Source: Phycisphaerae bacterium
GTDB taxonomy: Bacteria; Planctomycetota; Phycisphaerae; UBA1845; PWPN01
Length of the DNA: 64,000 bases
Direction of reading: 5' to 3'
Assembly: GCA_018003015.1 (NCBI GenBank)
Contig: JAGNEZ010000006.1
Coordinates: 62,001 to 126,000, forward strand
In this document: positions 6,703-62,108 of the stretch, in pieces
Layout of the letters: every line of letters begins with the position of its first letter
Position numbering within the stretch: the first letter of the stretch is position 1
Notes under the pieces: generated by a model
Seen by the model: only the letters and a program-made list of their open reading frames with translations
Told to the model about the DNA's origin: nothing
The model's database searches: none
Program-made: the position numbers and the translations under genes

Positions 6703-6805
6703 GTACGGTGACGGAAGGTCGAACAGCGGCCATGTGTTGCACTTGCGGATGGGGCCAGGTGCCCTCGTCGCAGGATGGAAGGGACGTCTTCGAGGTTGAT
6801 GCGCG

Positions 6806-6997
6806 GTGATCACCCTGACACGGTTGAACGACACCCGCTTTGTGATCAACGCTGACCTGATACGCACGGTGGAGGAACGTCCGGATACGACGATTGTGCT
6901 CATCAACGGGGAGACCTTCATTGTGAAGGAGAGCATGGAGGCCGTGGTTGCCAAGGCGATCGAATATGCCCGAACGGTGAGGGCGTTCAAGCCTTGA
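6806..6997 (+). CDS. flbD: FlbD family flagellar protein
   Basis: A 63-residue protein with a GTG start. It begins MITLTRLNDTRFVINADLI and continues with TVEERPDTTIVLINGETFIV, the whole-length signature of the small FlbD family (also called SwrD in Bacillus, where it boosts stator power). There are no membrane segments. It lies between flgE and motA, the usual location. The role is known only broadly; the family assignment is firm. Confidence 0.9.
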   Translation: MITLTRLNDTRFVINADLIRTVEERPDTTIVLINGETFIVKESMEAVVAKAIEYARTVRAFKP

Positions 6998-7159
6998 CGC
7001 AGGTGGAGTCCGGAGACTGGTGAACAGCAAGGTGCGTAAGGTCGATGAAACCACGGGATGGTCTCTCTGGCCGTCCGGTAACTGGGTCGCCCGGCTCGTC
7101 GCTCAAGGGCGTGTTGGATCGCTCCGCCGCGGTAAACGGACTCCGAGAGGGGGCGGGCG

Positions 7160-9658: not shown

Positions 9659-9683
9659 GGCTCTCCCAGGAGTGTTGGCCGCG

Positions 9684-16880: not shown

Positions 16881-18369
16881 GACCTATCAGGCTCACTCGA
16901 TGGCCGAGGCTCTTGAGAAGGTTAAGCGCGAACTCGGCCCCGACGCGGTTATCCTGAACACCCGAACCATTCGCAGGGGGGGCGTACTCGGCGTCGGGGC
17001 GAGAGACGTCATCGAGATCACCGCCAGCCGCGATCGCAACGCTCTGCCGGCCGTCGAACGACGGGCGATGGCCTATCGGGCGGCCAGCGCTGCGGGGCGA
17101 CCTTCCCCCGCCGCCGAGCCCCTTCGATCAGCATCCAGCCGCCCCTCGCTTCAGCCTCCCTCATCGCAACCTCTGGTCCAAAAAGATCTTAGCGCTGAGG
17201 AGGGGCTCGGTGATCGAGGTTCGACCCAGGTTTCGGCTTTCACCTCCGGGCTGCGCGACGAGATGCGCGAAATTCGGGGCATGGTCAGCGAGCTGCTCAA
17301 TCGACCGACCGTGGCCGCTCCCGCCGCACCGGCCGTGCCCGCCGAGTTCCAGGACTACTACACCCGCCTGCTTCAGAACGCTGTGGCCGAGGAACTGGCC
17401 CGCGAAGTCATCGCCAAGGCTCGTGAGCGCCTCGACGATTGCCGCACCCGAATCCTGTCTGGAGTGGCCGCCCGACTCGACCACGCCCAGGCGGAGGAGA
17501 AAGTCGCCGCGAAGCTGAACGAGCTCATTCCCGCGGTGCTCTCCGAGTGCATCGAACGCATGCTCCCCGCAGCCGAGCCGGTGACCGGTGAGGCCGGCGA
17601 TCCACCCAAGGTCATGGCGCTGGTCGGACCGACAGGCGTGGGTAAGACGACGACCATTGCCAAACTCGCCGCCCAATTCCGTCTGCGTGAACACAAGACC
17701 GTCGGCCTGATCACGATTGACACCTACCGGATCGCGGCCGTAGACCAGCTGAAGGCCTACGCCGACATCATGAGTCTCCCCCTGGAAGTGGTGTTTACCC
17801 CAGAGGAACTTGGTGCCGCGATCGTCAAACTGCGTCACTGCGACCTCATCCTGATCGATACCTCCGGGCGCAGCCATCGCGACCTGCAGCGATTGGGCGA
17901 GTTGCGGGCCTTCTTGGACGCCGCCCGCCGGGCAGCGGAACCGTCGCGGAAACCCCGGGGTCAGGCCGCCCGGCTCAAACACGCGACCGGCGACACTCCC
18001 AAGCGTGGTTCCGGGCGCGGGGCAGCGTCGGCCAAGAAGCGACTCGAAGTCCATCTGCTTCTGTCCTGCACATGTCACCAGGATCAGCTGCTCCAGGTGG
18101 CCGAGCGGTTCGCCGCTCTGGACGTCGATCGGGTGGTGTTTACCAAGTTGGACGAAGCGGTCGGCTTGGGCGTGATCCTCAACGTCGCCAGTCGTCTTAA
18201 ATGGCGCATGTCCTACTTGACGACCGGGCAGGAAGTGCCGGATGATATTGAAATAGGGCATCGGCGGCGGATCGCGGAGATGCTGCTGCGTCCAGAGTCG
18301 GATGCGACGGCCGAGGGCCGCTCATCCTCGACCCAAGCCGGCATCGCGTCCGTGGATCAGCTCGCATAG
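16870..18369 (+). CDS. flhF: FlhF, SRP-like GTPase for flagellar placement
   Basis: A 499-residue protein starting MELKTYQAHSMAEALEKVKR, the FlhF B-domain start. The SRP-type NG domain has G1 GPTGVGKT (253-260), DTYRIAAVDQLKAYADIM, G3 DTSGR, G4 TKLDEA and G5 TTGQEVPDD. FlhF sets position and number of flagella together with FlhG. Between G3 and the next strand there is an extra basic segment of about 40 residues (from roughly AEPSRKPRGQ to ASAKKRLE) that canonical FlhF lacks. The start lies inside the end of flhA. Confidence 0.95.
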   Translation: MELKTYQAHSMAEALEKVKRELGPDAVILNTRTIRRGGVLGVGARDVIEITASRDRNALPAVERRAMAYRAASAAGRPSPAAEPLRSASSRPSLQPPSSQPLVQKDLSAEEGLGDRGSTQVSAFTSGLRDEMREIRGMVSELLNRPTVAAPAAPAVPAEFQDYYTRLLQNAVAEELAREVIAKARERLDDCRTRILSGVAARLDHAQAEEKVAAKLNELIPAVLSECIERMLPAAEPVTGEAGDPPKVMALVGPTGVGKTTTIAKLAAQFRLREHKTVGLITIDTYRIAAVDQLKAYADIMSLPLEVVFTPEELGAAIVKLRHCDLILIDTSGRSHRDLQRLGELRAFLDAARRAAEPSRKPRGQAARLKHATGDTPKRGSGRGAASAKKRLEVHLLLSCTCHQDQLLQVAERFAALDVDRVVFTKLDEAVGLGVILNVASRLKWRMSYLTTGQEVPDDIEIGHRRRIAEMLLRPESDATAEGRSSSTQAGIASVDQLA

Positions 18370-18405
18370 GACCTCGGGGTCGGGGGTGTACGACCGGAGG
18401 CCAGG

Positions 18406-19320
18406 ATGTTCCGACATGAGGGTGGTAGTGGTCGCCTCGATCAGGCGAGCCGCTTGCGCCGCATGATGACCGTACCGGAGGCGACCGCCTCGCCGGACCA
18501 TCCTGCCGCTCATGTCATTGCTGTGGTCAGCGGCAAGGGCGGCGTGGGCAAAACGTTTATTTCCGCCAATCTCGCGATCGCTCTTTCTGCCCGTGGTCAT
18601 CGGGTCGTTCTCTTCGACCTCGACATGGGCTTGGCTAACACCGACATCATCCTGGGTGTCGAGGCCGCGGTTACCTGGCCCGAAGTGCTCGGGGGTCGTC
18701 GCTCGCCCGGCGAGGTGATCATTCAGGGACCCGGTGACATCGCCTTCGTGCCCGGCGCGTCGGGTATGGCCAATATCGCCAACCTCTCCGAGTTCGAGCG
18801 CCACCAGCTCCTGGCGGTCATGGAGGAAATCGAGAGTCGCTACCATGTCTGCATCCTGGACTGCGGGGCGGGCATCTCCCGCAACGTCGTGACACTGGCC
18901 GCCTCCGCGGATACCCTCCTGGTGGTGACCACGCCCGAGCCGACCGCCGTCACCGACGCCTACGCCACAATCAAGGCATTCGCTCAGGAGAGACAGCGCG
19001 CCGCCGATTCTGGTATGGGCGGTTCCATGGGTGTGATCGTCAATCAGGCACTCAGTCGCCGGGAGGGCCGGGACACCTACGAGCGCCTGGCCGGTGTCGC
19101 CGCGCGCTTCCTGCATGTACCGGTCACCGACTACGGCTATATCCTCGTCGACGAACATGTTCCCGCCGCCGTTCGTCAGCGCCGCCCGGTCCTGCTCGAT
19201 TACCCCCGATGCGCGGCCAGCAGCTGCATCATGGCCACGGCCGGGCGGCTCTCCCGCGAGTTGGGCCGTCCGGAAGCCCGGCAGAGCCTGTTTTATCGGG
19301 TCATTAGCCTGTTCATCTGA
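18406..19320 (+). CDS. flhG: FlhG, MinD-like ATPase for flagellar number
   Basis: A 304-residue ParA/MinD family ATPase. The deviant Walker A GKGGVGKT lies at residues 43-50, with FDLDMGLANTDIILG and YHVCILDCGAGIS further on. The short N-terminal helix LDQASRLRRM carries the DQAxxLR motif by which FlhG activates FlhF GTPase, which supports the ATG at 18406. A membrane-targeting amphipathic helix is plausible at the very C-terminus (SLFYRVISLFI). It follows flhF by 36 bp. Confidence 0.95.
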   Translation: MFRHEGGSGRLDQASRLRRMMTVPEATASPDHPAAHVIAVVSGKGGVGKTFISANLAIALSARGHRVVLFDLDMGLANTDIILGVEAAVTWPEVLGGRRSPGEVIIQGPGDIAFVPGASGMANIANLSEFERHQLLAVMEEIESRYHVCILDCGAGISRNVVTLAASADTLLVVTTPEPTAVTDAYATIKAFAQERQRAADSGMGGSMGVIVNQALSRREGRDTYERLAGVAARFLHVPVTDYGYILVDEHVPAAVRQRRPVLLDYPRCAASSCIMATAGRLSRELGRPEARQSLFYRVISLFI

Positions 19321-19358
19321 CCCGCCCGGTGACCTTGCCCCGGCCGCTGTTTTTGAGT

Positions 19359-19386
19359 TAAAGCTATCGATCGCCAGTGCCGTTAC
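19359..19386 (+). promoter_or_regulatory. possible sigma-28-type promoter
   Basis: TAAAGCTA (19359-19366), a 12-base spacer and GCCGTTAC (19379-19386) resemble the FliA consensus TAAAGTTT-N11-GCCGATAA. It lies about 40 bases upstream of the small membrane protein that precedes fliA, so it could let FliA drive its own gene. The spacer is one base longer than consensus and no second example was found in the window. Confidence 0.3.
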
Positions 19387-19425
19387 TCTTGAAACGATGA
19401 TTCACGGCGACAAGGACGTTGCGTG

Positions 19426-19815
19426 ATGATCAGACTCTGTGGAGCTTGCTTAGCTCTATTCGCGTTCTCGATCACGGTCCTGCTGGGTCTATCCGCCGGC
19501 AACCCGATCGAGGTGATTCTCCCTCGGGCAATTTGGGCGCTCGTTCTGTTCTGTGCAATCGGTTTGAGTGCTGGTTGGGTGGGCAGTCGCATACTCGATG
19601 AGCACGCCCTGCGGCGCAGTCGCGAGATGTTCACGGAAGTGGACGAATCCGAGGCTCAGCATGAGCCCCAGGCGCCAGGCGGAGATGCCGGCGCTGCCAA
19701 GACACCTGTGGGGCAAAAACGAGCCGAGGTGAGGGCGGGTGCAGGTACGGCCGCTCCCGCGGGCGCCACATCAAGCGCAAGAGCGCCTGCCACGGCCGGT
19801 GGGGGACCCCGGTGA
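19426..19815 (+). CDS. small membrane protein between flhG and fliA
   Basis: About 129 residues from ATG 19426 (GTG 19423 is an in-frame alternative). Two hydrophobic helices, CLALFAFSITVLLGLSAG and AIWALVLFCAIGLSAGWVG, are followed by a short charged stretch and an Ala/Gly/Pro/Thr-rich, probably disordered tail. I do not recognise a family. Its location, tightly between flhG and fliA and after a possible sigma-28 promoter, suggests a flagellum- or envelope-linked role, but nothing in the sequence fixes a function. Confidence 0.65.
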   Translation: MIRLCGACLALFAFSITVLLGLSAGNPIEVILPRAIWALVLFCAIGLSAGWVGSRILDEHALRRSREMFTEVDESEAQHEPQAPGGDAGAAKTPVGQKRAEVRAGAGTAAPAGATSSARAPATAGGGPR

Positions 19816-19867
19816 CCTGAACGGCTCGCCAGGGGTGGCTGATCAACGACCTATGGGGAGGTGATGG

Positions 19868-20626
19868 ATGGCCGACCTCGATACGGACATCCAGCAGGTC
19901 TGGTTGGATTACAAACAAAGTGGTGATCGCCGGTTGCGGAATATGCTCATGGAGCATTACCTGCCCCTCGTTCGCTACACCGCCGAGCGGGTGGCCACCA
20001 AGCTACCCAGCGAGGTAGATACCGACGACCTCGTTTCCGCCGGCACGTTCGGGCTCCTCGACGCCATCGAAGCCTTCGATCTCAGCCGCGGCGTCAAGTT
20101 CGAGACCTACTGCTCCGCACGCATCCGCGGCGCAATCCTCGACGAGCTCCGAACCATGGATTGGGTGCCGCGGCTTGTTCGCAGCCGGGCTCATCGGCTT
20201 GAGGTCGCCACTAAAGCCCTCCGAGCAGAATTGGGGCGACTTCCCTCCGACGATGAGGTGGCGCATCGATTGGGACTCAGCAAGGCCGAGTTTCACAAGC
20301 TCATGCGCGACGCCAACGCCGTGTCGCTCGTCTCGCTCTCACGCAAGTACCACGACGAAGATTCCACCCGCGAACTCCAGGAGATCGACGTCCTCGAGGA
20401 CCGCCAGAGCGAAGACCCCTTCAACGAACTGCAGAAACGCGACATGCGCGACGTCATCATGAGCGGCCTGAGTCGTATCGAACGACTCATCGTCGTGCTC
20501 TATTACTACGAGCAGATGACCATGAAGGAGATCGGCTCGACCCTCGACCTCTCCGAAAGCCGGGTGAGCCAGCTTCATTCCAGCATCCTCAGTCGGCTGA
20601 CGCATCAACTCATCCGCAAGTCCTAG
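19868..20626 (+). CDS. fliA: FliA, flagellar sigma-28 factor
   Basis: A 252-residue sigma factor of the FliA/WhiG class. Region 2 contains YLPLVRYTAERVATKLP and FDLSRGVKFETYCSARIRGA. Region 3 starts ILDELRTMDWVPRLVRSRAH. Region 4 includes LYYYEQMTMKEIGSTLDLSE and SRVSQLHSSIL. It directs transcription of late flagellar genes such as flagellin. It closes the flagellar block; no anti-sigma FlgM is visible next to it. The ATG at 19868 has GGAGG about 8 bases upstream. Confidence 0.95.
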   Translation: MADLDTDIQQVWLDYKQSGDRRLRNMLMEHYLPLVRYTAERVATKLPSEVDTDDLVSAGTFGLLDAIEAFDLSRGVKFETYCSARIRGAILDELRTMDWVPRLVRSRAHRLEVATKALRAELGRLPSDDEVAHRLGLSKAEFHKLMRDANAVSLVSLSRKYHDEDSTRELQEIDVLEDRQSEDPFNELQKRDMRDVIMSGLSRIERLIVVLYYYEQMTMKEIGSTLDLSESRVSQLHSSILSRLTHQLIRKS

Positions 20627-48561: not shown

Positions 48562-48593
48562 ATGGCCGCCACCTGCATGAAGGCGACAAAAGA

Positions 48594-48630
48594 ACACGGC
48601 CACGGGCGATTCGTGCACCCGTGGCCGTGT
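48594..48630 (-). terminator. intrinsic terminator of first tandem giant gene
   Basis: A perfect 13-bp stem, ACACGGCCACGGG (48594-48606) with CCCGTGGCCGTGT (48618-48630) and an 11-base loop. On the minus strand it is followed by TTCTTTTGT, a U-rich tract, so it reads as a terminator for the gene ending at 48657. It also lies after the plus-strand ligase gene and may act in both directions. Confidence 0.75.
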
Positions 48631-48656
48631 CGGAGTGTTACCTACCTTGCCCTAGA

Positions 48657-51600
48657 TTATCCCGGGCAGTTGGCGGTCGCTGTCCACGGAATCTCGGGTC
48701 CCGTGTAGCAGTTCTGGAACGCCGCGAAGTCGGTGGCGTTGATGAGGCCGTCGTCGTCCTGGTCAAGGCAGGAGCATCCCGCGGCCATTTCACCCGCGTC
48801 ACCCGTGAAGCACTGTTGCCATACGCCGAAGTCCGACTGATCTACGTCGGTGTCGCCATCCGTGTCCGCGAACGGGATCGGGCACGGGGTGACCGTCTGG
48901 AATACCTTGGCGGCATTCCCGACATTCACGATTTCAGGCGTGATGGTCCCATCGATCGAGACGATGAACTCTTTGAAGTGGAGGTCCTCGCCGCCGCCGC
49001 GCTCGTTCATGTCGATCTCGAACTTGTAGAGACCGTCCTGGTCCGCGACGACGTAGAAGTACCGCTCCGAAGCACCCTTCAGGGGCCCGGATTCGCCGAC
49101 GACGTTTCCGTCGAGATGCGGCGTCGTACCGCCCATCCACATCTTGAACCCGTCGTCAGTACTCACGGACAAGACGTGCCCGCCCTTGGTCAGGGCCAGG
49201 TAGCCGGTCACGCGAACGGCGAAATCCTCCTCGTTGGTGCCGGTCACCAGGTTCGGGTCGGTGAAGCCGGACATGCCCGGGAAGGTGTTGTCGCCGAAGT
49301 CGACCGTCTCGGTGATGGCGGTCACCCCCATCGTGCCCTGCTCATTGAGGCTCGGAATGCCGAGCAGGACCGCATCCAGGAGCTCGGTGCCGGAGATGTT
49401 GTCCCGGAACACGTTGCGGTCCCAGTCCCAGTCACCGTAACCGCTGATATTGAAGGTGGCGTTCACGGTCTGGACCTTGAAGCCGGGGTCAGCAGCGTCC
49501 TTGATGCGTCCGGCGCTGGCCGATGCCGGCAGGCGGACCGGGTTGGCGTGGGCCGTCGAGGCCGGGGCCGCGGTCAGGGTGCGATAGACGCTGACCGTCG
49601 AGCCGCCGTTGATCAGCACACGCTTGGTGGCCGCCGGATTGGCCGGATCGGCAATGTACTGGAACACTTCCATCGCGAAGCCGCCGCCTCGCTCGAAGAC
49701 ATCCGCCCGGATGTCGTAGAGGCCCGGCTCGTCCACCCAGATTGAGTGATACCAGTAGTCGCGCGGTCCGGTCGGATCCCGGAACCAGGTCACGCGCTGA
49801 CCGGCAATCCAGAGGTTGCCGCCGTCATCGCCATTGATGTTGAGAGCATAGGCGCCCGCCTCCGGGAACAGAATGTAGCCCGTGGCGGACACGACGAAGT
49901 CCTCGTTCTCGGCCGTGGGCAGGATTACGGTACCCGATGGATCGAAGGCGTTCACGTCACGATCCGGGTAGCCGTTCGACGCCGTGAAGATGCCGGACGC
50001 CCTGGTGATGCCATCCGTACCATGGTCGGAGTAATTGAGCGTGAGCGAGGTATCGGTCAACTCGGTGCCAAACGGGACGGGGATACTGGCCAGGCTGTTC
50101 TCGGCCAGCGCGGTCCCGCGATAATCACCATCGATCGCCACGAGAGCGGCGAACTCTGGCAGTTCCTTAACCAGCTTGGCGTTCCAGCCCAACTCGCCTT
50201 CCTGGCCGACATTGGCCACCTTGCGGTCGGCGGTAATCCGGATGCCACGCGGCTCCGGCATCGGTGCATCGGCCGGGATGGTCGCCTCGGTCCAGACGGT
50301 AATGGCGTTGGGATCGGTCGCGGTGTTCAGCACGACCATGCCGTCGCCATACGTGGCCTCGCCGAACTCGAGATACGCATCGCCGCCGAACTCGGCAAAC
50401 TCGACGGTGATGGCATACACGCCGGCCTCGGCAAGGTTGATCGGCAGGGCTTCATAGTTGGTGCCTGCCCCGCTGTAAATGGTCTGATTGCCGAGCTTGA
50501 GGGTGAAGTTGTCGTCGGACCGCAGCCAGAGGTAGTAGCGGCCGGCTCGCGGGAAGTTGGCGTAGCCCCAGGCTTTCACGCCGTAGCCATCCGCGCTGAG
50601 ATAGTAGTCGCTGGCCGGCGGACCGGGATTGGCCCCGGCGTCGAACCCCCACGGTATGGGTCCCAAAACAGGAGTGATACCCGGGAATTGCTCATTGTTG
50701 GGTATCATGCCGCCCTCGGTCTCGTATGGGGCATCCCACACCTCGTTGGAGTATGTCCAGTTGCCGGCTGAGCCCGAAACCGTGACGTGCAGGTGGATCG
50801 TCCAGTCCGTGTAGTTCAGTCCGCTGGCCGTGGTGACGGGATAGGCCACGTTGGGCATGGCTTCGAGCATCCGCTGAGCGCTGATAACCTCGTCACCCTC
50901 CTCGTCATAGGCCATGCCGCCCCAGCTCCAATCGGTGGGAGCCTTGACGACCTTCAGGTTGAACTTCTGCTCGCCGCCAACGACGGCGCCCTGGATCTTC
51001 TGGCTGGCGAGCACGTCGACGCCATGGGGCGGCACGCTGGCCAGGATGTCCATCGGGATCGCGCCCAGGCTGGAGCCGTAGATCACCGGATGATCAGGCA
51101 TGCCTTCCGGCCGGGTGTTGCCCACCAGGACGTACTTGGGTCCGAGCAGCAGCTGGTCGGGGATTGCGACAACCCGGCTGAACTCGATACCTGAGCCGCC
51201 GCCGCCTTCCCAGTAGATGATCTGGATCGGATAGACGCCGGGCTCGGAAACGGTGACGCCGAAGGTGGTTCCGGCATCGCAGCCCCGCCCGGCGTCGAAG
51301 TAGCCGATGACCTGGTTGGTCGTGCCGGTTCCAATGACGCAGCAGAAGCCGTCATCGGAGCTGACGTTGAAGAAGTAATCCTTGGCTTCGGGGAAGCAGA
51401 TCCAGCCTTTGAACACGGCTCCGTAGTAATCGGCACTGTTTACACCGGGCATCTGCCGTTTGCCGCCGTTGTGGCCGCCGCACCCATTGACATCCGCGTA
51501 GTTGACATCCTTCTGGGCGTGGAGGTTGGCGGCGACGAGACCGTGAGTCTCCGCGTACTGCAGCCAGTAGGCGGCCGGGCCGAGGTAGTTGTTCCAGTTG

Positions 51601-52757
51601 CGGACATAGCTGTAGACCTTGACATCCCAGCCATCCACCGCCGGATTAGGCAGGGTGGCGGGGCAGTCTGCGGCCTTGCCGGCAGGGTTGAGCGGCACCG
51701 GCGTCGGCAGACTGGCGATGGGAACGTCGATCGGGTCGCAGGCCGTGCCCGGGTCACTCAAGACCGTGGTGTTCACGACGATGTTGTCGACCTGATGAAC
51801 GGCGTTGCAGCCACCGGTCGAGCCGGTGACGCCGAATACGGCGGTGGGGAACTCTGCCGGCCAGGCTCCGACGCAGCCTTCAAGAACCATGATGCCGTAG
51901 GGCTGGCCGACCGGATCATCCATGCCGTAGGAGTAGCCGGCGCCGCCGGTGGCCGGGTCCACCTTGAGGTACACGCGGACCTTGCCGGTGCCGCCCTCGG
52001 CCGGATCGTTGTAGAAGATGGTGAAATGCACCGGCTGGCCGCCATCGCCGGTCGTGACCATTCGGGGAATAGAGCCCGCACCCACGACGTCGACGTTGGT
52101 GATCAAACTAGGAAGCCGGTCCGTGCCGCGTCCGCCCGGATTCCACAGAGCATAGACGTCGAGACCCACGTGGTTATTCTGATCAGCTCCGGGCGGATCG
52201 AGGCCAGCCTCCTCCGTGTTGTACCAGACGTCAAACTCGATGGCCAAGCCGTCGAGCCCGCCCCAGGACACACCGCCGCCGCCGACGCCGATCTTGTTGA
52301 CGGCATCCGCAACGGATGTGGTCACAGGCATCAGCGCGATCACGCCACCGTCCGCCGGGCTGCAGACATTGCCCGAGCGAAGGATGAGGTCGAACTCGAT
52401 TCTGATGGCCTGGTTAGTCAACTGAATCGGATAGTCGCCGGAGTGGGCTCCGGCGCCGTTGTACCAGGCCGCGGCCGCGCGGCCGTCCTGGTTCTGACCG
52501 GGATGGATCAGGTTGAGCCGCCCGGGGCCCGTCCAAGAAGCACCGTAGTCCACGGTCATGCCCCAGCCGTCCGGATCCTGGGTGAACACGGCAGGCGGAT
52601 ATGCCGCGTTGTTGCTGATACACGTCCACCCCGTCGGAGTGCTCAAGTGTGCGTACGAATTGAAATTCTCGCTGAGACTGAAGGGGGTCTGGCCATTGGC
52701 TCCAACGGCGGCCACCAGACCCACTAGAGCGCAACACAAACAAAGACTGCGGCGCAT
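48657..52757 (-). CDS. giant secreted lectin/PA14 protein, copy 1, dockerin-like tail
   Basis: From ATG 52757 (GGGAGG upstream) the product is 1366 residues. A signal peptide (MRRSLCLCCALVGLVAAVGA) precedes an L-type-lectin/LamG-like domain (about 25-320). Four PA14-like modules follow, for example around FKGWICFPEAKDYFFNVSSD, GYANFPRAGRYYLWLRSDDN, GYILFPEAGAYALNINGDDG and GYLALTKGGHVLSVSTDDGF. A C-terminal pair of EF-hand/dockerin-like loops contains DTDGDTDVDQSDFG and DQDDDGLINATDF, with NCYTG afterwards. No catalytic motif is seen; it looks like an adhesin or carbohydrate-binding scaffold on or outside the cell. Bases 48865-52725 repeat at 53568-57428. Confidence 0.85.
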   Translation of the reverse strand: MRRSLCLCCALVGLVAAVGANGQTPFSLSENFNSYAHLSTPTGWTCISNNAAYPPAVFTQDPDGWGMTVDYGASWTGPGRLNLIHPGQNQDGRAAAAWYNGAGAHSGDYPIQLTNQAIRIEFDLILRSGNVCSPADGGVIALMPVTTSVADAVNKIGVGGGGVSWGGLDGLAIEFDVWYNTEEAGLDPPGADQNNHVGLDVYALWNPGGRGTDRLPSLITNVDVVGAGSIPRMVTTGDGGQPVHFTIFYNDPAEGGTGKVRVYLKVDPATGGAGYSYGMDDPVGQPYGIMVLEGCVGAWPAEFPTAVFGVTGSTGGCNAVHQVDNIVVNTTVLSDPGTACDPIDVPIASLPTPVPLNPAGKAADCPATLPNPAVDGWDVKVYSYVRNWNNYLGPAAYWLQYAETHGLVAANLHAQKDVNYADVNGCGGHNGGKRQMPGVNSADYYGAVFKGWICFPEAKDYFFNVSSDDGFCCVIGTGTTNQVIGYFDAGRGCDAGTTFGVTVSEPGVYPIQIIYWEGGGGSGIEFSRVVAIPDQLLLGPKYVLVGNTRPEGMPDHPVIYGSSLGAIPMDILASVPPHGVDVLASQKIQGAVVGGEQKFNLKVVKAPTDWSWGGMAYDEEGDEVISAQRMLEAMPNVAYPVTTASGLNYTDWTIHLHVTVSGSAGNWTYSNEVWDAPYETEGGMIPNNEQFPGITPVLGPIPWGFDAGANPGPPASDYYLSADGYGVKAWGYANFPRAGRYYLWLRSDDNFTLKLGNQTIYSGAGTNYEALPINLAEAGVYAITVEFAEFGGDAYLEFGEATYGDGMVVLNTATDPNAITVWTEATIPADAPMPEPRGIRITADRKVANVGQEGELGWNAKLVKELPEFAALVAIDGDYRGTALAENSLASIPVPFGTELTDTSLTLNYSDHGTDGITRASGIFTASNGYPDRDVNAFDPSGTVILPTAENEDFVVSATGYILFPEAGAYALNINGDDGGNLWIAGQRVTWFRDPTGPRDYWYHSIWVDEPGLYDIRADVFERGGGFAMEVFQYIADPANPAATKRVLINGGSTVSVYRTLTAAPASTAHANPVRLPASASAGRIKDAADPGFKVQTVNATFNISGYGDWDWDRNVFRDNISGTELLDAVLLGIPSLNEQGTMGVTAITETVDFGDNTFPGMSGFTDPNLVTGTNEEDFAVRVTGYLALTKGGHVLSVSTDDGFKMWMGGTTPHLDGNVVGESGPLKGASERYFYVVADQDGLYKFEIDMNERGGGEDLHFKEFIVSIDGTITPEIVNVGNAAKVFQTVTPCPIPFADTDGDTDVDQSDFGVWQQCFTGDAGEMAAGCSCLDQDDDGLINATDFAAFQNCYTGPEIPWTATANCPG
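48865..52725. repeat. 3.86-kb duplicated core, unit 1
   Basis: This block recurs at a constant offset of 4703 bases (53568-57428). Every stretch compared, including translations in several frames, is the same. The match starts abruptly at TCCGCGAACGGG and ends at CCACT inside the signal-peptide coding region. Outside these borders the two loci differ clearly. The block covers all of the mature protein except the last 60-odd residues. Confidence 0.9.
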
Positions 52758-53148
52758 GCGACATGTCCTCCCAAAAAAGAAACGACCTTTGTCTCCTGCT
52801 AGCAGCAATGCGCGCAGCAGAACCGACACAGCGTACGGAACCACTACATGCAACGCTGCTCTACACTTCCGAAAAGCCGCCAGGTTGTTCAGGGTAGCGA
52901 ACGGGGTGCCTACACCACCAACGACACCACCCCCGCGCGTGCTCCTCTTACCGAAACACACGCCCTACCAGACTCCATTTCAGGTTGTGATAACGACTGG
53001 AGCCGACTCCGCAGCCGCTTTCTCTCTCCTTTACAGCTTGTTCAAAACGGGAGATCCAGGCGTTGAAATGGGCGACAGCCCGATCCCATCCGTTTTCGGC
53101 CCAAGCTGGACCGCTTCGATATGGCGGCCACCTCAAGCCGACTATCTT

Positions 53149-53176
53149 ACTATACCACGTCCCTGGGCTTCGTCAA
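53149..53176 (-). promoter_or_regulatory. sigma-70 promoter of tandem copy 1
   Basis: Read on the minus strand: TTGACG (53171-53176), a 16-base spacer, and TATAGT (53149-53154). The same arrangement with the same spacer stands before copy 2. Transcription would start near 53142, giving a leader of about 385 bases before ATG 52757. The gap 52758-53353 otherwise holds this leader and the copy 2 terminator. Confidence 0.55.
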
Positions 53177-53286
53177 GGCCCAAAGGCGGGAAGATGCGGG
53201 CTGATCGCCGGTAAAAAATGGAATGAGAGGCCTGCGGCGCCCGCCCGGCGTGCGATGGAGCGGCGTCGGGCGGACGCACACAGGAT

Positions 53287-53323
53287 ACACGACCATGGGC
53301 GCGTCTGGCGCCCATGGTCGTGT
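53287..53323 (-). terminator. terminator-like hairpin of tandem copy 2
   Basis: A perfect 16-bp stem, ACACGACCATGGGCGC (53287-53302) with GCGCCCATGGTCGTGT (53308-53323) and a 5-base loop, downstream of the copy 2 stop. It is homologous to the hairpin after copy 1: the shared outer stem differs at two positions, each with a compensating change in the other arm. No clear U-tract follows. Confidence 0.65.
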
Positions 53324-53353
53324 CGGAGTGTTGCTTACCCAGGATCGTCCTGA

Positions 53354-56300
53354 TCAAGGAACGCAATCAGGTGTCAACGCCTGGGTCCAGATGATCGCGG
53401 GTCCCGTGTAGCAGTTCTGGAATGCCGCGAAGTCCAGGGCGTCGATGGCATCGTTGCTGTCCTGGTCCAGGCAGGAGCATGCCTGGGCAGCTCCGCCCAC
53501 CTCGCCCGTGTAGCAGAGCTGCCATGCACCGAAGTCCCTCTGGTCCACGTCGCCGTCAGCGTCCGTATCCGCGAACGGGATCGGGCACGGGGTGACCGTC
53601 TGGAATACCTTGGCGGCATTCCCGACATTCACGATTTCAGGCGTGATGGTCCCATCGATCGAGACGATGAACTCTTTGAAGTGGAGGTCCTCGCCGCCGC
53701 CGCGCTCGTTCATGTCGATCTCGAACTTGTAGAGACCGTCCTGGTCCGCGACGACGTAGAAGTACCGCTCCGAAGCACCCTTCAGGGGCCCGGATTCGCC
53801 GACGACGTTTCCGTCGAGATGCGGCGTCGTACCGCCCATCCACATCTTGAACCCGTCGTCAGTACTCACGGACAAGACGTGCCCGCCCTTGGTCAGGGCC
53901 AGGTAGCCGGTCACGCGAACGGCGAAATCCTCCTCGTTGGTGCCGGTCACCAGGTTCGGGTCGGTGAAGCCGGACATGCCCGGGAAGGTGTTGTCGCCGA
54001 AGTCGACCGTCTCGGTGATGGCGGTCACCCCCATCGTGCCCTGCTCATTGAGGCTCGGAATGCCGAGCAGGACCGCATCCAGGAGCTCGGTGCCGGAGAT
54101 GTTGTCCCGGAACACGTTGCGGTCCCAGTCCCAGTCACCGTAACCGCTGATATTGAAGGTGGCGTTCACGGTCTGGACCTTGAAGCCGGGGTCAGCAGCG
54201 TCCTTGATGCGTCCGGCGCTGGCCGATGCCGGCAGGCGGACCGGGTTGGCGTGGGCCGTCGAGGCCGGGGCCGCGGTCAGGGTGCGATAGACGCTGACCG
54301 TCGAGCCGCCGTTGATCAGCACACGCTTGGTGGCCGCCGGATTGGCCGGATCGGCAATGTACTGGAACACTTCCATCGCGAAGCCGCCGCCTCGCTCGAA
54401 GACATCCGCCCGGATGTCGTAGAGGCCCGGCTCGTCCACCCAGATTGAGTGATACCAGTAGTCGCGCGGTCCGGTCGGATCCCGGAACCAGGTCACGCGC
54501 TGACCGGCAATCCAGAGGTTGCCGCCGTCATCGCCATTGATGTTGAGAGCATAGGCGCCCGCCTCCGGGAACAGAATGTAGCCCGTGGCGGACACGACGA
54601 AGTCCTCGTTCTCGGCCGTGGGCAGGATTACGGTACCCGATGGATCGAAGGCGTTCACGTCACGATCCGGGTAGCCGTTCGACGCCGTGAAGATGCCGGA
54701 CGCCCTGGTGATGCCATCCGTACCATGGTCGGAGTAATTGAGCGTGAGCGAGGTATCGGTCAACTCGGTGCCAAACGGGACGGGGATACTGGCCAGGCTG
54801 TTCTCGGCCAGCGCGGTCCCGCGATAATCACCATCGATCGCCACGAGAGCGGCGAACTCTGGCAGTTCCTTAACCAGCTTGGCGTTCCAGCCCAACTCGC
54901 CTTCCTGGCCGACATTGGCCACCTTGCGGTCGGCGGTAATCCGGATGCCACGCGGCTCCGGCATCGGTGCATCGGCCGGGATGGTCGCCTCGGTCCAGAC
55001 GGTAATGGCGTTGGGATCGGTCGCGGTGTTCAGCACGACCATGCCGTCGCCATACGTGGCCTCGCCGAACTCGAGATACGCATCGCCGCCGAACTCGGCA
55101 AACTCGACGGTGATGGCATACACGCCGGCCTCGGCAAGGTTGATCGGCAGGGCTTCATAGTTGGTGCCTGCCCCGCTGTAAATGGTCTGATTGCCGAGCT
55201 TGAGGGTGAAGTTGTCGTCGGACCGCAGCCAGAGGTAGTAGCGGCCGGCTCGCGGGAAGTTGGCGTAGCCCCAGGCTTTCACGCCGTAGCCATCCGCGCT
55301 GAGATAGTAGTCGCTGGCCGGCGGACCGGGATTGGCCCCGGCGTCGAACCCCCACGGTATGGGTCCCAAAACAGGAGTGATACCCGGGAATTGCTCATTG
55401 TTGGGTATCATGCCGCCCTCGGTCTCGTATGGGGCATCCCACACCTCGTTGGAGTATGTCCAGTTGCCGGCTGAGCCCGAAACCGTGACGTGCAGGTGGA
55501 TCGTCCAGTCCGTGTAGTTCAGTCCGCTGGCCGTGGTGACGGGATAGGCCACGTTGGGCATGGCTTCGAGCATCCGCTGAGCGCTGATAACCTCGTCACC
55601 CTCCTCGTCATAGGCCATGCCGCCCCAGCTCCAATCGGTGGGAGCCTTGACGACCTTCAGGTTGAACTTCTGCTCGCCGCCAACGACGGCGCCCTGGATC
55701 TTCTGGCTGGCGAGCACGTCGACGCCATGGGGCGGCACGCTGGCCAGGATGTCCATCGGGATCGCGCCCAGGCTGGAGCCGTAGATCACCGGATGATCAG
55801 GCATGCCTTCCGGCCGGGTGTTGCCCACCAGGACGTACTTGGGTCCGAGCAGCAGCTGGTCGGGGATTGCGACAACCCGGCTGAACTCGATACCTGAGCC
55901 GCCGCCGCCTTCCCAGTAGATGATCTGGATCGGATAGACGCCGGGCTCGGAAACGGTGACGCCGAAGGTGGTTCCGGCATCGCAGCCCCGCCCGGCGTCG
56001 AAGTAGCCGATGACCTGGTTGGTCGTGCCGGTTCCAATGACGCAGCAGAAGCCGTCATCGGAGCTGACGTTGAAGAAGTAATCCTTGGCTTCGGGGAAGC
56101 AGATCCAGCCTTTGAACACGGCTCCGTAGTAATCGGCACTGTTTACACCGGGCATCTGCCGTTTGCCGCCGTTGTGGCCGCCGCACCCATTGACATCCGC
56201 GTAGTTGACATCCTTCTGGGCGTGGAGGTTGGCGGCGACGAGACCGTGAGTCTCCGCGTACTGCAGCCAGTAGGCGGCCGGGCCGAGGTAGTTGTTCCAG

Positions 56301-57460
56301 TTGCGGACATAGCTGTAGACCTTGACATCCCAGCCATCCACCGCCGGATTAGGCAGGGTGGCGGGGCAGTCTGCGGCCTTGCCGGCAGGGTTGAGCGGCA
56401 CCGGCGTCGGCAGACTGGCGATGGGAACGTCGATCGGGTCGCAGGCCGTGCCCGGGTCACTCAAGACCGTGGTGTTCACGACGATGTTGTCGACCTGATG
56501 AACGGCGTTGCAGCCACCGGTCGAGCCGGTGACGCCGAATACGGCGGTGGGGAACTCTGCCGGCCAGGCTCCGACGCAGCCTTCAAGAACCATGATGCCG
56601 TAGGGCTGGCCGACCGGATCATCCATGCCGTAGGAGTAGCCGGCGCCGCCGGTGGCCGGGTCCACCTTGAGGTACACGCGGACCTTGCCGGTGCCGCCCT
56701 CGGCCGGATCGTTGTAGAAGATGGTGAAATGCACCGGCTGGCCGCCATCGCCGGTCGTGACCATTCGGGGAATAGAGCCCGCACCCACGACGTCGACGTT
56801 GGTGATCAAACTAGGAAGCCGGTCCGTGCCGCGTCCGCCCGGATTCCACAGAGCATAGACGTCGAGACCCACGTGGTTATTCTGATCAGCTCCGGGCGGA
56901 TCGAGGCCAGCCTCCTCCGTGTTGTACCAGACGTCAAACTCGATGGCCAAGCCGTCGAGCCCGCCCCAGGACACACCGCCGCCGCCGACGCCGATCTTGT
57001 TGACGGCATCCGCAACGGATGTGGTCACAGGCATCAGCGCGATCACGCCACCGTCCGCCGGGCTGCAGACATTGCCCGAGCGAAGGATGAGGTCGAACTC
57101 GATTCTGATGGCCTGGTTAGTCAACTGAATCGGATAGTCGCCGGAGTGGGCTCCGGCGCCGTTGTACCAGGCCGCGGCCGCGCGGCCGTCCTGGTTCTGA
57201 CCGGGATGGATCAGGTTGAGCCGCCCGGGGCCCGTCCAAGAAGCACCGTAGTCCACGGTCATGCCCCAGCCGTCCGGATCCTGGGTGAACACGGCAGGCG
57301 GATATGCCGCGTTGTTGCTGATACACGTCCACCCCGTCGGAGTGCTCAAGTGTGCGTACGAATTGAAATTCTCGCTGAGACTGAAGGGGGTCTGGCCATT
57401 GGCTCCAACGGCGGCCACCAGACCCACTGCAGCACAACACACAAACAGATGGTAGCGCAT
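53354..57460 (-). CDS. giant secreted lectin/PA14 protein, copy 2, dockerin-like tail
   Basis: From ATG 57460 the product is 1368 residues with the same architecture as the neighbouring copy: signal peptide (MRYHLFVCCAAVGLVAAVGA), lectin-like domain, four PA14-like modules and an EF-hand/dockerin-like tail. The tail differs: DTDADGDVDQRDFGAWQLCY and DQDSNDAIDALDF, ending TPDCVP. Between the signal peptide and the tail the two proteins look identical. Each has its own promoter and terminator, so they are separate transcription units. Identical binding modules with different tails could place the same adhesin at two anchoring sites. Confidence 0.85.
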   Translation of the reverse strand: MRYHLFVCCAAVGLVAAVGANGQTPFSLSENFNSYAHLSTPTGWTCISNNAAYPPAVFTQDPDGWGMTVDYGASWTGPGRLNLIHPGQNQDGRAAAAWYNGAGAHSGDYPIQLTNQAIRIEFDLILRSGNVCSPADGGVIALMPVTTSVADAVNKIGVGGGGVSWGGLDGLAIEFDVWYNTEEAGLDPPGADQNNHVGLDVYALWNPGGRGTDRLPSLITNVDVVGAGSIPRMVTTGDGGQPVHFTIFYNDPAEGGTGKVRVYLKVDPATGGAGYSYGMDDPVGQPYGIMVLEGCVGAWPAEFPTAVFGVTGSTGGCNAVHQVDNIVVNTTVLSDPGTACDPIDVPIASLPTPVPLNPAGKAADCPATLPNPAVDGWDVKVYSYVRNWNNYLGPAAYWLQYAETHGLVAANLHAQKDVNYADVNGCGGHNGGKRQMPGVNSADYYGAVFKGWICFPEAKDYFFNVSSDDGFCCVIGTGTTNQVIGYFDAGRGCDAGTTFGVTVSEPGVYPIQIIYWEGGGGSGIEFSRVVAIPDQLLLGPKYVLVGNTRPEGMPDHPVIYGSSLGAIPMDILASVPPHGVDVLASQKIQGAVVGGEQKFNLKVVKAPTDWSWGGMAYDEEGDEVISAQRMLEAMPNVAYPVTTASGLNYTDWTIHLHVTVSGSAGNWTYSNEVWDAPYETEGGMIPNNEQFPGITPVLGPIPWGFDAGANPGPPASDYYLSADGYGVKAWGYANFPRAGRYYLWLRSDDNFTLKLGNQTIYSGAGTNYEALPINLAEAGVYAITVEFAEFGGDAYLEFGEATYGDGMVVLNTATDPNAITVWTEATIPADAPMPEPRGIRITADRKVANVGQEGELGWNAKLVKELPEFAALVAIDGDYRGTALAENSLASIPVPFGTELTDTSLTLNYSDHGTDGITRASGIFTASNGYPDRDVNAFDPSGTVILPTAENEDFVVSATGYILFPEAGAYALNINGDDGGNLWIAGQRVTWFRDPTGPRDYWYHSIWVDEPGLYDIRADVFERGGGFAMEVFQYIADPANPAATKRVLINGGSTVSVYRTLTAAPASTAHANPVRLPASASAGRIKDAADPGFKVQTVNATFNISGYGDWDWDRNVFRDNISGTELLDAVLLGIPSLNEQGTMGVTAITETVDFGDNTFPGMSGFTDPNLVTGTNEEDFAVRVTGYLALTKGGHVLSVSTDDGFKMWMGGTTPHLDGNVVGESGPLKGASERYFYVVADQDGLYKFEIDMNERGGGEDLHFKEFIVSIDGTITPEIVNVGNAAKVFQTVTPCPIPFADTDADGDVDQRDFGAWQLCYTGEVGGAAQACSCLDQDSNDAIDALDFAAFQNCYTGPAIIWTQALTPDCVP
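53568..57428. repeat. 3.86-kb duplicated core, unit 2
   Basis: Second copy of the block at 48865-52725, in the same orientation. The borders fall inside the coding sequence at both ends, while leaders, promoters, signal peptide and tail coding regions of the two loci are related but diverged. Confidence 0.9.
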
Positions 57461-57848
57461 GCGACATGTCCTCCCAAAAAAAGAAATGACCTCGTTTCCC
57501 TGCCAAACGGCGGTAGGAGCGCGAGCCGACACCACGACATGCAGGGTGTACGCCCCCGGCGCCGTCGTACTCTCGAGATAGGCCGATCGTTCAATAAGGT
57601 CAACGACGTGAGTGCTTCACATCCCCACAGTCGTCGCCCCCGCATGAGCATCGCTTGGGCGCGCTCATGGCACGCAGGACTCCAAATCACCGAAGCTCCA
57701 ACGAGAACCTGATCTCCAGCCTCTTTCTGTTTCCCTAGACCGTCGATTTGCATGTGGGACCCAGGCACTGATATGAACGCTATCCTGATCCCATCCGTCC
57801 TCGGCACTCGCCGCGTTGACATGAGAGCGACTCTGTGCCGACATCCGT

Positions 57849-57876
57849 AATATAGCACGATCGCTGCCTGGGTCAA
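57849..57876 (-). promoter_or_regulatory. sigma-70 promoter of tandem copy 2
   Basis: Read on the minus strand: TTGACC (57871-57876), a 16-base spacer, and TATATT (57849-57854) preceded by TGC (extended -10). It sits 4700 bases from the matching copy 1 promoter. The predicted leader is about 380 bases. In both leaders GATCCCATCCG occurs near the 5' end and the ribosome-site block next to the start codon is conserved; the rest has diverged. Nothing else is seen in 57461-58076. Confidence 0.55.
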
Positions 57877-58076
57877 GGGCCAAAATCGCAGGGCTTTGTT
57901 TTGCGACACGCCCGAGGATCTTCAAGCGTAATCCGCTTGCCGGCTGGCTGTGGGCGGCATGGGGACCAGACAAGGCTGGGTTCGGACGGCCGCTTCGGCT
58001 TAAGGGGCGCTTTAGCTACGGTGATCGCCCAACTTCTGCGCTCTCGGGAAGCGCTTGGCCTTCAAGCACCTCGCGG

Positions 58077-58624: not shown

Positions 58625-61600
58625 CTACTCGTCACAGTTCGGGTCCGCCGCCATCGCCGGACCGCTCCAGCAGTTGGTGAACGCGATGAGGTCCGCGGCG
58701 TCGATCTTCTCGTCGCCGTTGCGGTCGAAGCACTCGCAGCCGGCGGGGATGCCGGTGGTGGTGCCGGTGTAGCACTTCTGGAACTCGCCGAAGTCCACCT
58801 GGTCGACGTCGTTGTCCACGTCACGATCGGCGAAGACCGCTCCGCAATCCTTGGCTCCCTTGAGCAGAACACGCATCGTGATGGGCTGGCCCAGCGCGAT
58901 CAGCGGGTTCGGCAACTCCTGAGCGGTCGGCATCTTCCCTGAGGTCAGGCGGAGCCATCGCTTCTGCTGAGCATCGACGAACTGGAATGAGATCTTCAGC
59001 GACTTCGTTCCGGCTCCGTCGGCCTGCTCCTCGGACACTTCCGCCACGTTCGGCGGGGTGATCAGGTTGGCGGCGGTTGTGCCTGAGTAGGTCGGCTGGG
59101 CAAAGATGACCTTCGCGGCGGGTGCGTAGCTCTCAAAGTCGGTGAGCAACGTTGTGCCGCTGTAGATGTTGTCGATGTAGACCGTGTATCGACCGGTGTT
59201 TGGCGTGGTCGTGTCAATGGCAAAGGCCAGGTGCTCGAGCACACCCCAACTGCCGTCGAGAATGCCGTTGCCGGCGTTGAAGCTCAGAACCTTGTCCACG
59301 CCCGGCGTGAAGGTCACGGTCTGCCAGTCTGGATCGACCGGCACCTGCTTGCCTTGCGGGGCACCTCCGACAGTCGTGGTCGGACCGAGCCACTCGATGT
59401 TTCCGGTCATCCCGCCATCAGCGCCCACCGGTCCCGTGCCGCCGGTCTCGCGGATGCCGACGGACATGAGCAATCCGGTGTTCTTGCCCAGGCCGACCAC
59501 TGGTCCGACCTTGCCCTTGCACCCTTCCATGTCCTGGGCGGGGTCGCAGATGCTGAGCGTCTGAGTCGCAACCAGCGTCTTGCCCTTGACCAGCGGTGCC
59601 ACCGCGACGTTGGCGGTCGCGGCGGAAGGCACGACCTCGCCCAACTTGGTCCAATTGTCACCGCCGTCCCAAGTGTACACCGTCACCATCGTGGCCGGCG
59701 GGCTGGTGCTGACGCCGCTGACGGTTACGGTGGTCTCGCCGGCCTCGAGCGGCCCGGTATTGATGGTGACTGCCCCAACGCGCTGGCAGACGCAAGGCGG
59801 TTCGCCTTCACCCAGGGTGATGTCGTCCACCCACATCGCCGGGTAACCGGCGGCACTGGTGCCCGATGCCCCGGTTGTCACATAGTTGGCGACATTGGTC
59901 GAGAAGACGATCAACAGGCTGTCGCCGGCGTTGGCTGAGAAGGAGCCGGTGTAGGCCAGCTTCATGGCTCCATCGATGCCGACGCCATCCTGGTTCTCGG
60001 TCAGAGGAGTGTAATCACCGATGACGCCACCTGTATCAGTCGTGACGCCGGCCAGGGAAGCCGGATGCACGCGGTGCTGCCCGTTGACCAGAACGCCGAC
60101 CTGGTAGGTCGACATCCAGGCCAGATTGGCCCCCGTTCCACTCTCGTCCGCCAGCATGCTGACCTTGATGTGATAGACGCCCGTGGCGGGGATGACCTGC
60201 TCGTAAATGGCGTACATGCCGTTCTGATAGCCGTTGTCCGAGATCTTCATGGCCTTGGAGCCGAACAGCCCCCCGGAGGCCGCGATCGTGGCCGCATAAC
60301 CCCCGTCGCCGACGTCGTACCACGTGCGGTACGTGCCTGTCGGGAAGGGGTTATCTGCATCAATGACCCCGTCCTCGAAATCCTCGATGACCCAGGAGGC
60401 CATGACCCGCCGGCCGGTGGCAGGCATGCAGCCTTCGATGCGGATCACCTGCGTGGCCTTGATCGTTTGGGTGAGGACCAGCCCGGTCACGTTCACGAGC
60501 ACGGTGCTGTTGCCGCCCGGGGCGTTGTTCGTCCCGATCAGGGTGTCGGTCGTTCCGTCGTTGGCGTAGACCTTCACCGCGGTCGCGTTCGCGGACACGC
60601 CGGCCACACGGACCTGGGTGCGTCCGGCATCCACCAGGCCCACAACGGTGACGGCCGGGATCTGCTCGCACGAACCGACCACCGGACCATCCGCGGGGGC
60701 GCAGCCATTCAACGTGCGGAACCTCTGGGTCGCGGTGATCTTGGTGTTAGCCACCAAGGCAGTGACGGCTACGATCACCGTGGCGTTGCCGCCTGGAGCA
60801 TTGTTCGTCCCGATCGCCGTTCCGTTGGAGTACACCGTGACCGCAGTGGCGCTTGGGCTCACGCCGGAAACGGTTACTGTTGTGTCGCCGGCCAGAACCA
60901 CGCTGCCGACGGCAACCGCAGGAACCTGGGCACAGTCGTTGACCACCGGACCGGTCGCGGGCAGGCAGCTCTCCGTATCCAAGGCCGGCTCGCCCACCAC
61001 CTTGTTCTGTGTCGCGGTGATCGTCTGTCCGCTGATCAGAGCAGTGACCGGTACGGTAACCGTCGTGGCCCCACCCGGGCTGGTGTTCTGGCCAATCTTG
61101 GCTCCGTTGGCATAGACGCTGACCTTGGTCGCCTCGGGATCGACGCCGGTCACCGTAACGCTGGTGTCGCCGGCGATCAGTGCTCCCTGGAAAACGCCGA
61201 CATCAGGGACGTCCGTGCAGCCATGTCCCTTGAAAATGAACTTGACGGCGTCGCACATGACACGGGCGCCCGTGCCGCCGGTCTGGGTCTTCTTGACCGT
61301 GAGCGTGTAGGGCTGGCCCGCGGTCATGGTGAACTGCGTGGTCGTGTCAATGGTGAGCTGATTCCATTGATCGTATAGACCGCCGTCCTGATTCTGGTTC
61401 AGCACCCATGTGTTGGTGGTCTTGCTGCCCGGATTCGAGGGGTCATCGAACTCGAGGATGTGGTCGACCAAGGTGTTGTTGTTGGTCGACCTGCCCCAGG
61501 TCACGTACACCTCGTAGGGGCCGGTGGCCTGGGGCGTGAAGGTGAACGTCCCGTAGTTGCTGGCCGTGCCGGTATCGTAGGTGAAGAATCGGCCCTGGAT

Positions 61601-61813
61601 GCCGACCGTAAGGCCGGCCGCCTTGCTGTGAGCTGACGTGCCGTACCAGCCGGTTCCGGTCTCGGCGTAGCAGCAGTCCCGGTGTTGGCCGTGGATCGTG
61701 CCCGTCGCATCCGTTCCACCTTCGATGATGTATTCCGTATCCAGCAGTGCCATCGCGTTGACCGCCGTGGCGAGCACGATGAGGATGGCCCCCCAAGTGT
61801 ACTTCGTGGTCAT
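58625..61813 (-). CDS. large secreted Ig-repeat protein with dockerin-like tail
   Basis: From ATG 61813 (AAGGAG upstream) the product is 1062 residues. A signal peptide (ending TAVNAMALLD) leads to a golvesin-like beta domain (about 25-175, with TWGRSTNNNTLVDHILEF). Three tandem Ig-like repeats follow, each with TxVTVxGVxxxAT and APGGN-type turns. Next come a jelly-roll module (VIEDFEDGVIDADNPFPTGT), a fourth Ig repeat, a second jelly-roll and an EF-hand/dockerin-like tail (DRDVDNDVDQVDFGEFQKCY, DRNGDEKIDAADL). The tail is of the same type as in the tandem pair. It is probably exported and carbohydrate- or surface-binding; no catalytic site is visible. Confidence 0.82.
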   Translation of the reverse strand: MTTKYTWGAILIVLATAVNAMALLDTEYIIEGGTDATGTIHGQHRDCCYAETGTGWYGTSAHSKAAGLTVGIQGRFFTYDTGTASNYGTFTFTPQATGPYEVYVTWGRSTNNNTLVDHILEFDDPSNPGSKTTNTWVLNQNQDGGLYDQWNQLTIDTTTQFTMTAGQPYTLTVKKTQTGGTGARVMCDAVKFIFKGHGCTDVPDVGVFQGALIAGDTSVTVTGVDPEATKVSVYANGAKIGQNTSPGGATTVTVPVTALISGQTITATQNKVVGEPALDTESCLPATGPVVNDCAQVPAVAVGSVVLAGDTTVTVSGVSPSATAVTVYSNGTAIGTNNAPGGNATVIVAVTALVANTKITATQRFRTLNGCAPADGPVVGSCEQIPAVTVVGLVDAGRTQVRVAGVSANATAVKVYANDGTTDTLIGTNNAPGGNSTVLVNVTGLVLTQTIKATQVIRIEGCMPATGRRVMASWVIEDFEDGVIDADNPFPTGTYRTWYDVGDGGYAATIAASGGLFGSKAMKISDNGYQNGMYAIYEQVIPATGVYHIKVSMLADESGTGANLAWMSTYQVGVLVNGQHRVHPASLAGVTTDTGGVIGDYTPLTENQDGVGIDGAMKLAYTGSFSANAGDSLLIVFSTNVANYVTTGASGTSAAGYPAMWVDDITLGEGEPPCVCQRVGAVTINTGPLEAGETTVTVSGVSTSPPATMVTVYTWDGGDNWTKLGEVVPSAATANVAVAPLVKGKTLVATQTLSICDPAQDMEGCKGKVGPVVGLGKNTGLLMSVGIRETGGTGPVGADGGMTGNIEWLGPTTTVGGAPQGKQVPVDPDWQTVTFTPGVDKVLSFNAGNGILDGSWGVLEHLAFAIDTTTPNTGRYTVYIDNIYSGTTLLTDFESYAPAAKVIFAQPTYSGTTAANLITPPNVAEVSEEQADGAGTKSLKISFQFVDAQQKRWLRLTSGKMPTAQELPNPLIALGQPITMRVLLKGAKDCGAVFADRDVDNDVDQVDFGEFQKCYTGTTTGIPAGCECFDRNGDEKIDAADLIAFTNCWSGPAMAADPNCDE

Positions 61814-62108
61814 GGCTTTCCAACTCCTTCGTTGGTTAGAAGAAACAGTGTTCAAGGATCTCCCGGCGACGCAGAGTTCGCCGGACGGATTCACGCTATT
61901 CCGGTGGATGCACACTTCCTGGTATCGACCCTGCCCCCCGCACTCTTCACTTGTCTTCGCCCGTACGTCGCGTCTGTAGGGTGGAACCGCTGCGCGAAAT
62001 GCGCGACCGATAACCGCCTCCTCCGATGCCCTTGGTATTGTCCGAGGCCAGATCGCCGTCGGGCCGCTCACCCCGGCCAAGACGGCGTGTTCTCATGAGG
62101 CGGCGCTG

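What the first reader, a model, noticed from the sequence alone, without database searches (positions are those of the whole stretch)
48865..57428. Tandem giant genes share an identical 3.86-kb core inside diverged flanks: gene conversion
Bases 48865-52725 and 53568-57428 match at a constant offset of 4703, with no difference found in any compared frame. Yet the homologous signal peptides, C-terminal tails, leaders, promoters and terminators on both sides have clearly diverged. A recent simple duplication would leave flanks identical too, so the pattern fits an old duplication whose cores are kept the same by recombination while the ends evolve separately.
Basis: partly seen in the sequence, partly recalled or inferred. 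Interest (0 to 1): 0.75.

Follow-up and report, generated by a model that had tools for sequence, protein, structure and literature searches.

The report
Tandem adhesin-like genes homogenised by recombination
Two neighbouring giant secreted-protein genes in a planctomycete genome assembly share a 3,861-base middle that reads as identical although their promoters, leaders, ends and terminators diverged before the species split from its sister; this is a clear but fairly ordinary case of two gene copies being kept alike by recombination, and the exact 100% identity could be overstated by short-read assembly.

Summary
The window lies in a planctomycete draft genome whose one same-genus relative (MAG RA.bin145) is syntenic. 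There, the gene-1 tail and gene-2 leader are orthologous (88% and 91.5%), much closer to their counterparts here than the two copies' ends are to each other. The core is only 91-93% identical between species (dS about 0.3) but 100% within this genome. So the flanks diverged before the species split and the cores were made alike afterwards. In the sister, both contigs stop about 400 bp inside the core, as expected if it too has two near-identical copies. Caveats: both drafts are k=127 short-read assemblies, so the repeat was read through a graph loop; 'exactly identical' is an upper limit on similarity and 'two copies' a minimum. Gene conversion and unequal crossing-over cannot be told apart. 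The genes encode secreted lectin-like/PA14/GLEYA proteins with dockerin-like tails. A second such pair lies on the same contig outside the window. Concerted evolution of tandem paralogs: known kind, new example.

The parts
48657..52757 (-). gene 1: 1366-aa secreted protein (signal peptide, lectin-like domain, GLEYA/PA14 modules, dockerin-like tail)
   Evidence: ORF and translation; Pfam PA14 E=1.7e-20, GLEYA 4.8e-7, L-type lectin 6e-6 below cut-off
53354..57460 (-). gene 2: 1368-aa tandem paralog of gene 1
   Evidence: ORF and translation; Pfam
48865..52725 (-). core copy 1, 3861 bp, no mismatch to copy 2; covers the second half of the signal peptide and the whole mature extracellular region up to the tail
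53568..57428 (-). core copy 2, identical to copy 1
48657..48864 (-). diverged 3' end of gene 1: dockerin-like two-motif tail
   Evidence: tail 1 (with the sequence just after it) is 88% identical to its sister-species ortholog but 68% to tail 2 (DNA); 88% versus 65% in protein
53354..53567 (-). diverged 3' end of gene 2: dockerin-like tail
52726..53180 (-). gene 1 promoter (-35 starts 53176, -10 ends 53149), leader of about 390 nt and first 11 codons, diverged
57429..57880 (-). gene 2 promoter (-35 starts 57876, -10 ends 57849), leader and first 11 codons, diverged from gene 1 but 91.5% identical to the sister species
48593..48631 (-). terminator hairpin of gene 1, 16-bp stem
53287..53323 (-). 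terminator-like hairpin of gene 2, 16-bp stem, differing from gene 1's by paired (compensatory) changes; weak T-run

Best explanation
An old tandem duplication of a complete transcription unit (promoter, about 390-nt leader, giant secreted adhesin-like gene, terminator) whose 3.86-kb protein-coding core has been homogenised by homologous recombination between the two direct repeats. This happened most recently after the split from the sister species. The 57-68% diverged ends are too different to recombine and evolve separately. Shown: exact core identity in the assembly; homologous but diverged ends; pre-speciation age of the divergence of the ends; post-speciation homogenisation of the core. 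Inferred: RecA-type recombination as the agent (gene conversion or unequal crossover), two near-identical copies also in the sister, and selection for a uniform protein as a possible reason for retention.
For: 3861 bp with 0 mismatches; step profile; synteny with sister contigs C13 (L029) and C72 (L030); tail 269/305 identical to the ortholog versus 202/296 between paralogs; leader 455/497 versus 275/483; core 392/421 and 342/377 between species versus 421/421 and 377/377 within this genome. Copies diverging at the species rate would show about 64 differences in those 798 bp; none is seen; dS 0.27-0.32 in the core between species, so identity is not due to DNA-level constraint; leaders homologous over their whole length; tail 1, tail 2 and the sister tail group together (80/69 support), with tail 1 and the sister tail 1 paired (95/95); sister contigs end 420 bp and 377 bp inside the core and no other core piece is in its bin; contigs of both genomes overlap by up to 127 bases at repeat ends; the two other family loci (C28/C78, C59/C2) are single copies with a counterpart in each genome, so only the tandem neighbours behave this way.
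Against: The genome is a short-read (k=127) assembly, so the two cores may come from one collapsed graph edge. Isolated differences would have been merged: metaSPAdes, the likely assembler, collapses bulges (PMC8021871). The middle spacer (tail 2 + leader 1) is not present in the sister's bin, so two copies there are inferred, not seen. Only one sister species exists in the collection. Tail trees are short and weakly supported.
Confidence: 0.8

Rival explanations
1. Assembly effect: two moderately similar cores, or a single core plus a loop, were written out twice from one collapsed edge of a short-read assembly graph, so the apparent perfect identity is largely artificial.
For: Contig ends in this genome and the sister overlap by 124-127 bases, and a 100-N scaffold gap is present, which marks a k=127 short-read assembly unable to span 3.86 kb. 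Metagenome assemblers merge small differences (PMC8021871).
Against: The 842-bp middle segment (tail 2 + leader 1) joins core end to core start in one contig and is distinct from both outer flanks, so the graph forces at least two passes through the core unless the loop is a separate circle. Copies as different as the two species (7-9%) would not be expected to collapse into one edge. The sister species breaks at the same repeat.
Confidence: 0.1
2. Recent simple tandem duplication of a single gene, with no old duplication.
For: The core copies are identical.
Against: A recent duplication would copy leader and tail too. Instead the leaders are 57% and the tails 68% identical, while each available end is 88-91.5% identical to the sister species; the new junctions would have to come from diverged homologous sequence.
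Confidence: 0.03
3. Tail 2 and leader 1 came from another, diverged paralog by ectopic recombination, and the core was copied in at that time (mosaic insertion rather than long-term co-evolution).
For: Dockerin-like tails are a genome-wide repeated family, tail 2 is as close to one other tail (C44b, 65%) as to tail 1, and another giant-gene pair on the same contig has a shared core joined to different ends.
Against: Leader 1 is homologous to leader 2 over its full length and not visibly to the leaders of the other two family loci. The terminator hairpins match in position and structure. The sister assembly breaks inside the core, which suggests that it already has two copies.
Confidence: 0.1
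4. Identity maintained by strong selection on the DNA or protein of both copies.
For: Protein change between species is slow (4 of 139 and 9 of 125 residues).
Against: Synonymous sites differ freely between species (dS 0.27-0.32) but not at all between the two copies.
Confidence: 0.01

Closest known systems
tufA/tufB of Salmonella: experimentally measured gene conversion between two near-identical genes (PMC5485169)
   Different: tuf copies are far apart and about 1.2 kb (from my own knowledge); here they are adjacent, 3.9 kb, secreted and genus-specific, and no conversion has been measured
Concerted evolution of duplicated genes in prokaryotes (LRCE set, PMC6053082)
   Same: Paralogs within a species more alike than orthologs between species
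   Different: That set is genes of important pathways, mostly over more than about 500 million years; here one genus and two species, and a surface-type protein
Duplicated outer-membrane adhesin genes of Helicobacter pylori (hom/bab families; for example PMC2795765)
   Same: Adhesin-type paralogs exchanging segments by recombination
   Different: There many strains were sampled and the arrangement of exchanged and diverged parts differs (own knowledge); here the whole mature region is the uniform part and only regulatory and end regions differ

Membership tests
Concerted evolution (gene conversion or unequal crossover) of paralogs | Paralogs in one genome more similar than orthologs between species in the affected region | tested here: met
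   Core 100% within, 91-93% between species
Concerted evolution (gene conversion or unequal crossover) of paralogs | Outside the affected region, orthologs more similar than paralogs (duplication older than the species split) | tested here: met
   Tail 1: 88% versus 68%; leader 2: 91.5% versus 57%
Concerted evolution (gene conversion or unequal crossover) of paralogs | Both paralogs present in both species | tested here: inconclusive
   Sister has leader 2 and tail 1 joined to core ends that run off contig ends; spacer and core interior absent from its bin
Concerted evolution (gene conversion or unequal crossover) of paralogs | Non-reciprocal transfer (gene conversion) rather than crossover | not testable with these tools
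   Needs tract data from populations or an experiment
PA14/GLEYA-domain surface proteins | PA14 or GLEYA profile match above curated cut-off | tested here: met
   PA14 73.8 bits versus 24, GLEYA 30.4 versus 26.2; several modules
Dockerin type I proteins | Profile match above curated cut-off in the tail | tested here: not met
   15.5 bits versus 22.9; dockerin-like tail only
L-type (legume) lectins | Profile match above curated cut-off in the N-terminal domain | tested here: not met
   30.9 bits versus 78.3; weak resemblance only

The most novel reading that the evidence does not exclude
In this planctomycete genus, giant secreted dockerin-tailed genes are a general substrate for ectopic homogenisation: several paralog pairs keep near-identical mature regions joined to diverged promoters or ends. 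A second pair on the same contig shows a 3599-bp exact core inside diverged flanks. The tandem here may also vary in copy number.
Probability: 0.25. Interest if true: 0.45.

Novelty: new member of a known kind. Interest (0 to 1): 0.35.

Why it matters
It is a clean natural example in which the border between recombining and non-recombining sequence can be read to the base, in a phylum for which my paper search found no such report. It shows that a surface-protein pair can be kept uniform in its exposed part while regulation, signal and tail diverge. It also shows a practical trap: such pairs look perfect in short-read metagenome assemblies and break the assembly of related genomes.

Tried and rejected
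One scan of GTDB contigs for other genomes with the core found only the sister MAG RA.bin145. Family-wide (13 genomes) and phylum-wide (392 genomes) searches found no other genome with the core beyond this genus, so no third species is available. Paper search for RA.bin145 gave nothing, and for gene conversion in Planctomycetes nothing relevant. No Rfam family in the leaders. 16S search did not help to judge the assembly type (one copy each); contig-end overlaps did. A first script for exact repeats timed out and was replaced. The two 700-aa neighbours in the window were considered as another duplicate pair and rejected as unrelated. Structure prediction was not run: without an admissible alignment of relatives it would be weak and would not bear on the finding.

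Full report
WHAT IS THERE. The stated match is exact. At offset 4703, positions 48865-52725 and 53568-57428 agree at all 3861 bases, with the first mismatches at 48864 and 52726. An alignment of the whole units shows a sharp step on both sides, to 62-72% on the tail/terminator side and 51-67% in the leader. Both genes read on the minus strand. With starts at ATG 52757 and ATG 57460, placed behind the same GGGAGGAC motif, they encode 1366 and 1368 aa. Each has its own promoter-like pair, a leader of about 390 nt and a strong terminator-like hairpin. The promoter-like matches are no more frequent than in shuffled sequence, but they sit at the same place in both units. The hairpins differ by paired changes that keep the stem (alignment). 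The leaders are homologous along their full length (local score 67 versus 11.7 +/- 1.5 in shuffles), so the duplicated unit was a complete transcription unit, not just the core.

WHAT THE PROTEINS ARE. Signal peptide, an N-terminal domain weakly like L-type lectins (below cut-off), GLEYA/PA14 modules (above cut-off as a whole) and a two-motif dockerin-like tail (below the dockerin cut-off). A profile of the family matches solved PA14 domains and modules of large bacterial adhesins and antifreeze proteins. From this I infer a secreted, probably carbohydrate-binding surface protein; no function has been tested. The core is restricted to this genus: 2 of 13 family genomes, and in a phylum-wide draw of 392 genomes only this one at E <= 1e-20. 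Two further family members at 33-38% identity (C28 and C59 here, C78 and C2 in the sister) are single copies with a counterpart in each genome.

THE TEST. The only other genome of the genus, MAG RA.bin145 (G001; one search gives the name), is syntenic at 92-94% on both sides. Its contig C13 begins 420 bp inside the core on the gene-1 tail side; its contig C72 ends 377 bp inside the core on the gene-2 leader side. In the ends, orthologs win: tail 1 269/305 to the ortholog against 202/296 to tail 2; leader 2 455/497 to the ortholog against 275/483 to leader 1. In the core, paralogs win: 421/421 and 377/377 within this genome against 392/421 and 342/377 between species. Synonymous divergence between species is ordinary there (dS 0.27 and 0.32), so constraint does not explain the identity. 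If the two copies had diverged since the species split, about 64 differences would be expected in those 798 bp; none is present. Hence the ends diverged before the split and the cores were homogenised after it.

THE ASSEMBLY CAVEAT. Contig ends in this genome share exact overlaps of 124-127 bases, and in the sister 126-127; this genome also holds a 100-N gap and a shortest contig of 2519 bp. Both are therefore k=127 short-read de Bruijn assemblies, most likely metaSPAdes (the assembler is my inference). Such an assembler cannot span 3.86 kb with ordinary read pairs; it wrote out a loop: upstream - core - spacer - core - tail. The spacer (tail 2 + leader 1, 842 bp) is unique sequence that joins core end to core start, so at least two core passes are forced, unless the loop is a separate circle; there may be more than two. 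Small differences between copies are merged by metaSPAdes (PMC8021871), so 100% is an upper limit. I judge real identity to be at least about 98%, because copies as different as the species would not be expected to collapse; this figure is a judgement, not a measurement. In the sister, k=127 means that the repeat proper starts about 293 and 250 bp further in than here, which, if a repeat is the cause of the break, suggests a somewhat shorter homogenised tract there. The core interior and spacer are missing from its bin, as expected for short or double-depth contigs; two copies there are inferred, not seen.

MECHANISM. Direct repeats 4.7 kb apart with about 3.9 kb of near-identity are good substrates for homologous recombination. 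Conversion of one copy by the other, or cycles of unequal crossover, would both homogenise the core and stop where similarity falls to 57-68%. The persistence of a diverged spacer argues against complete loss and re-duplication, because it could not be regenerated from one gene. Gene conversion proper is a reasonable but unproven choice. [quoted passage not shown]

A SECOND CASE. On the same contig, outside the window (C6:6298-9896 and 16747-20345), two other giant secreted beta-helix/dockerin-tailed genes share an exact 3599-bp 3' core with different N-terminal parts and different last codons. The sister has a single copy, on contig C48, at about 82-84%, and its contig runs straight through, unlike at the pair studied here. 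The same assembly caveat applies.

VERDICT. Observation confirmed; interpretation supported, with conversion versus crossover open and exactness limited by short reads. Known kind, new example.

Noticed in passing
same contig outside the window: L044 (C6:1-20000) 6298-9896, and C6:16747-20345 in L044 and L079: Second pair of giant secreted dockerin-tailed (beta-helix) genes with an exact 3599-bp shared 3' core, diverged N-terminal parts and diverged last codons; the sister species has one copy on contig C48 (L119).
   Followed up: partly
L029 start and L030 end (sister genome contigs C13 and C72): Sister contigs stop about 290 and 250 bp (after subtracting k=127) further inside the core than the identity borders here, suggesting a shorter homogenised tract in that species.
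   Followed up: partly
58625-62080: The next gene upstream on the same strand is another large protein with a dockerin-like tail and a sub-threshold Golvesin_C match; such tails recur in dozens of genes across this genome.
   Followed up: partly
52758-53148 and 57461-57848: Both genes have unusually long (about 390 nt) homologous untranslated leaders with no Rfam match; possible post-transcriptional regulation.
   Followed up: partly
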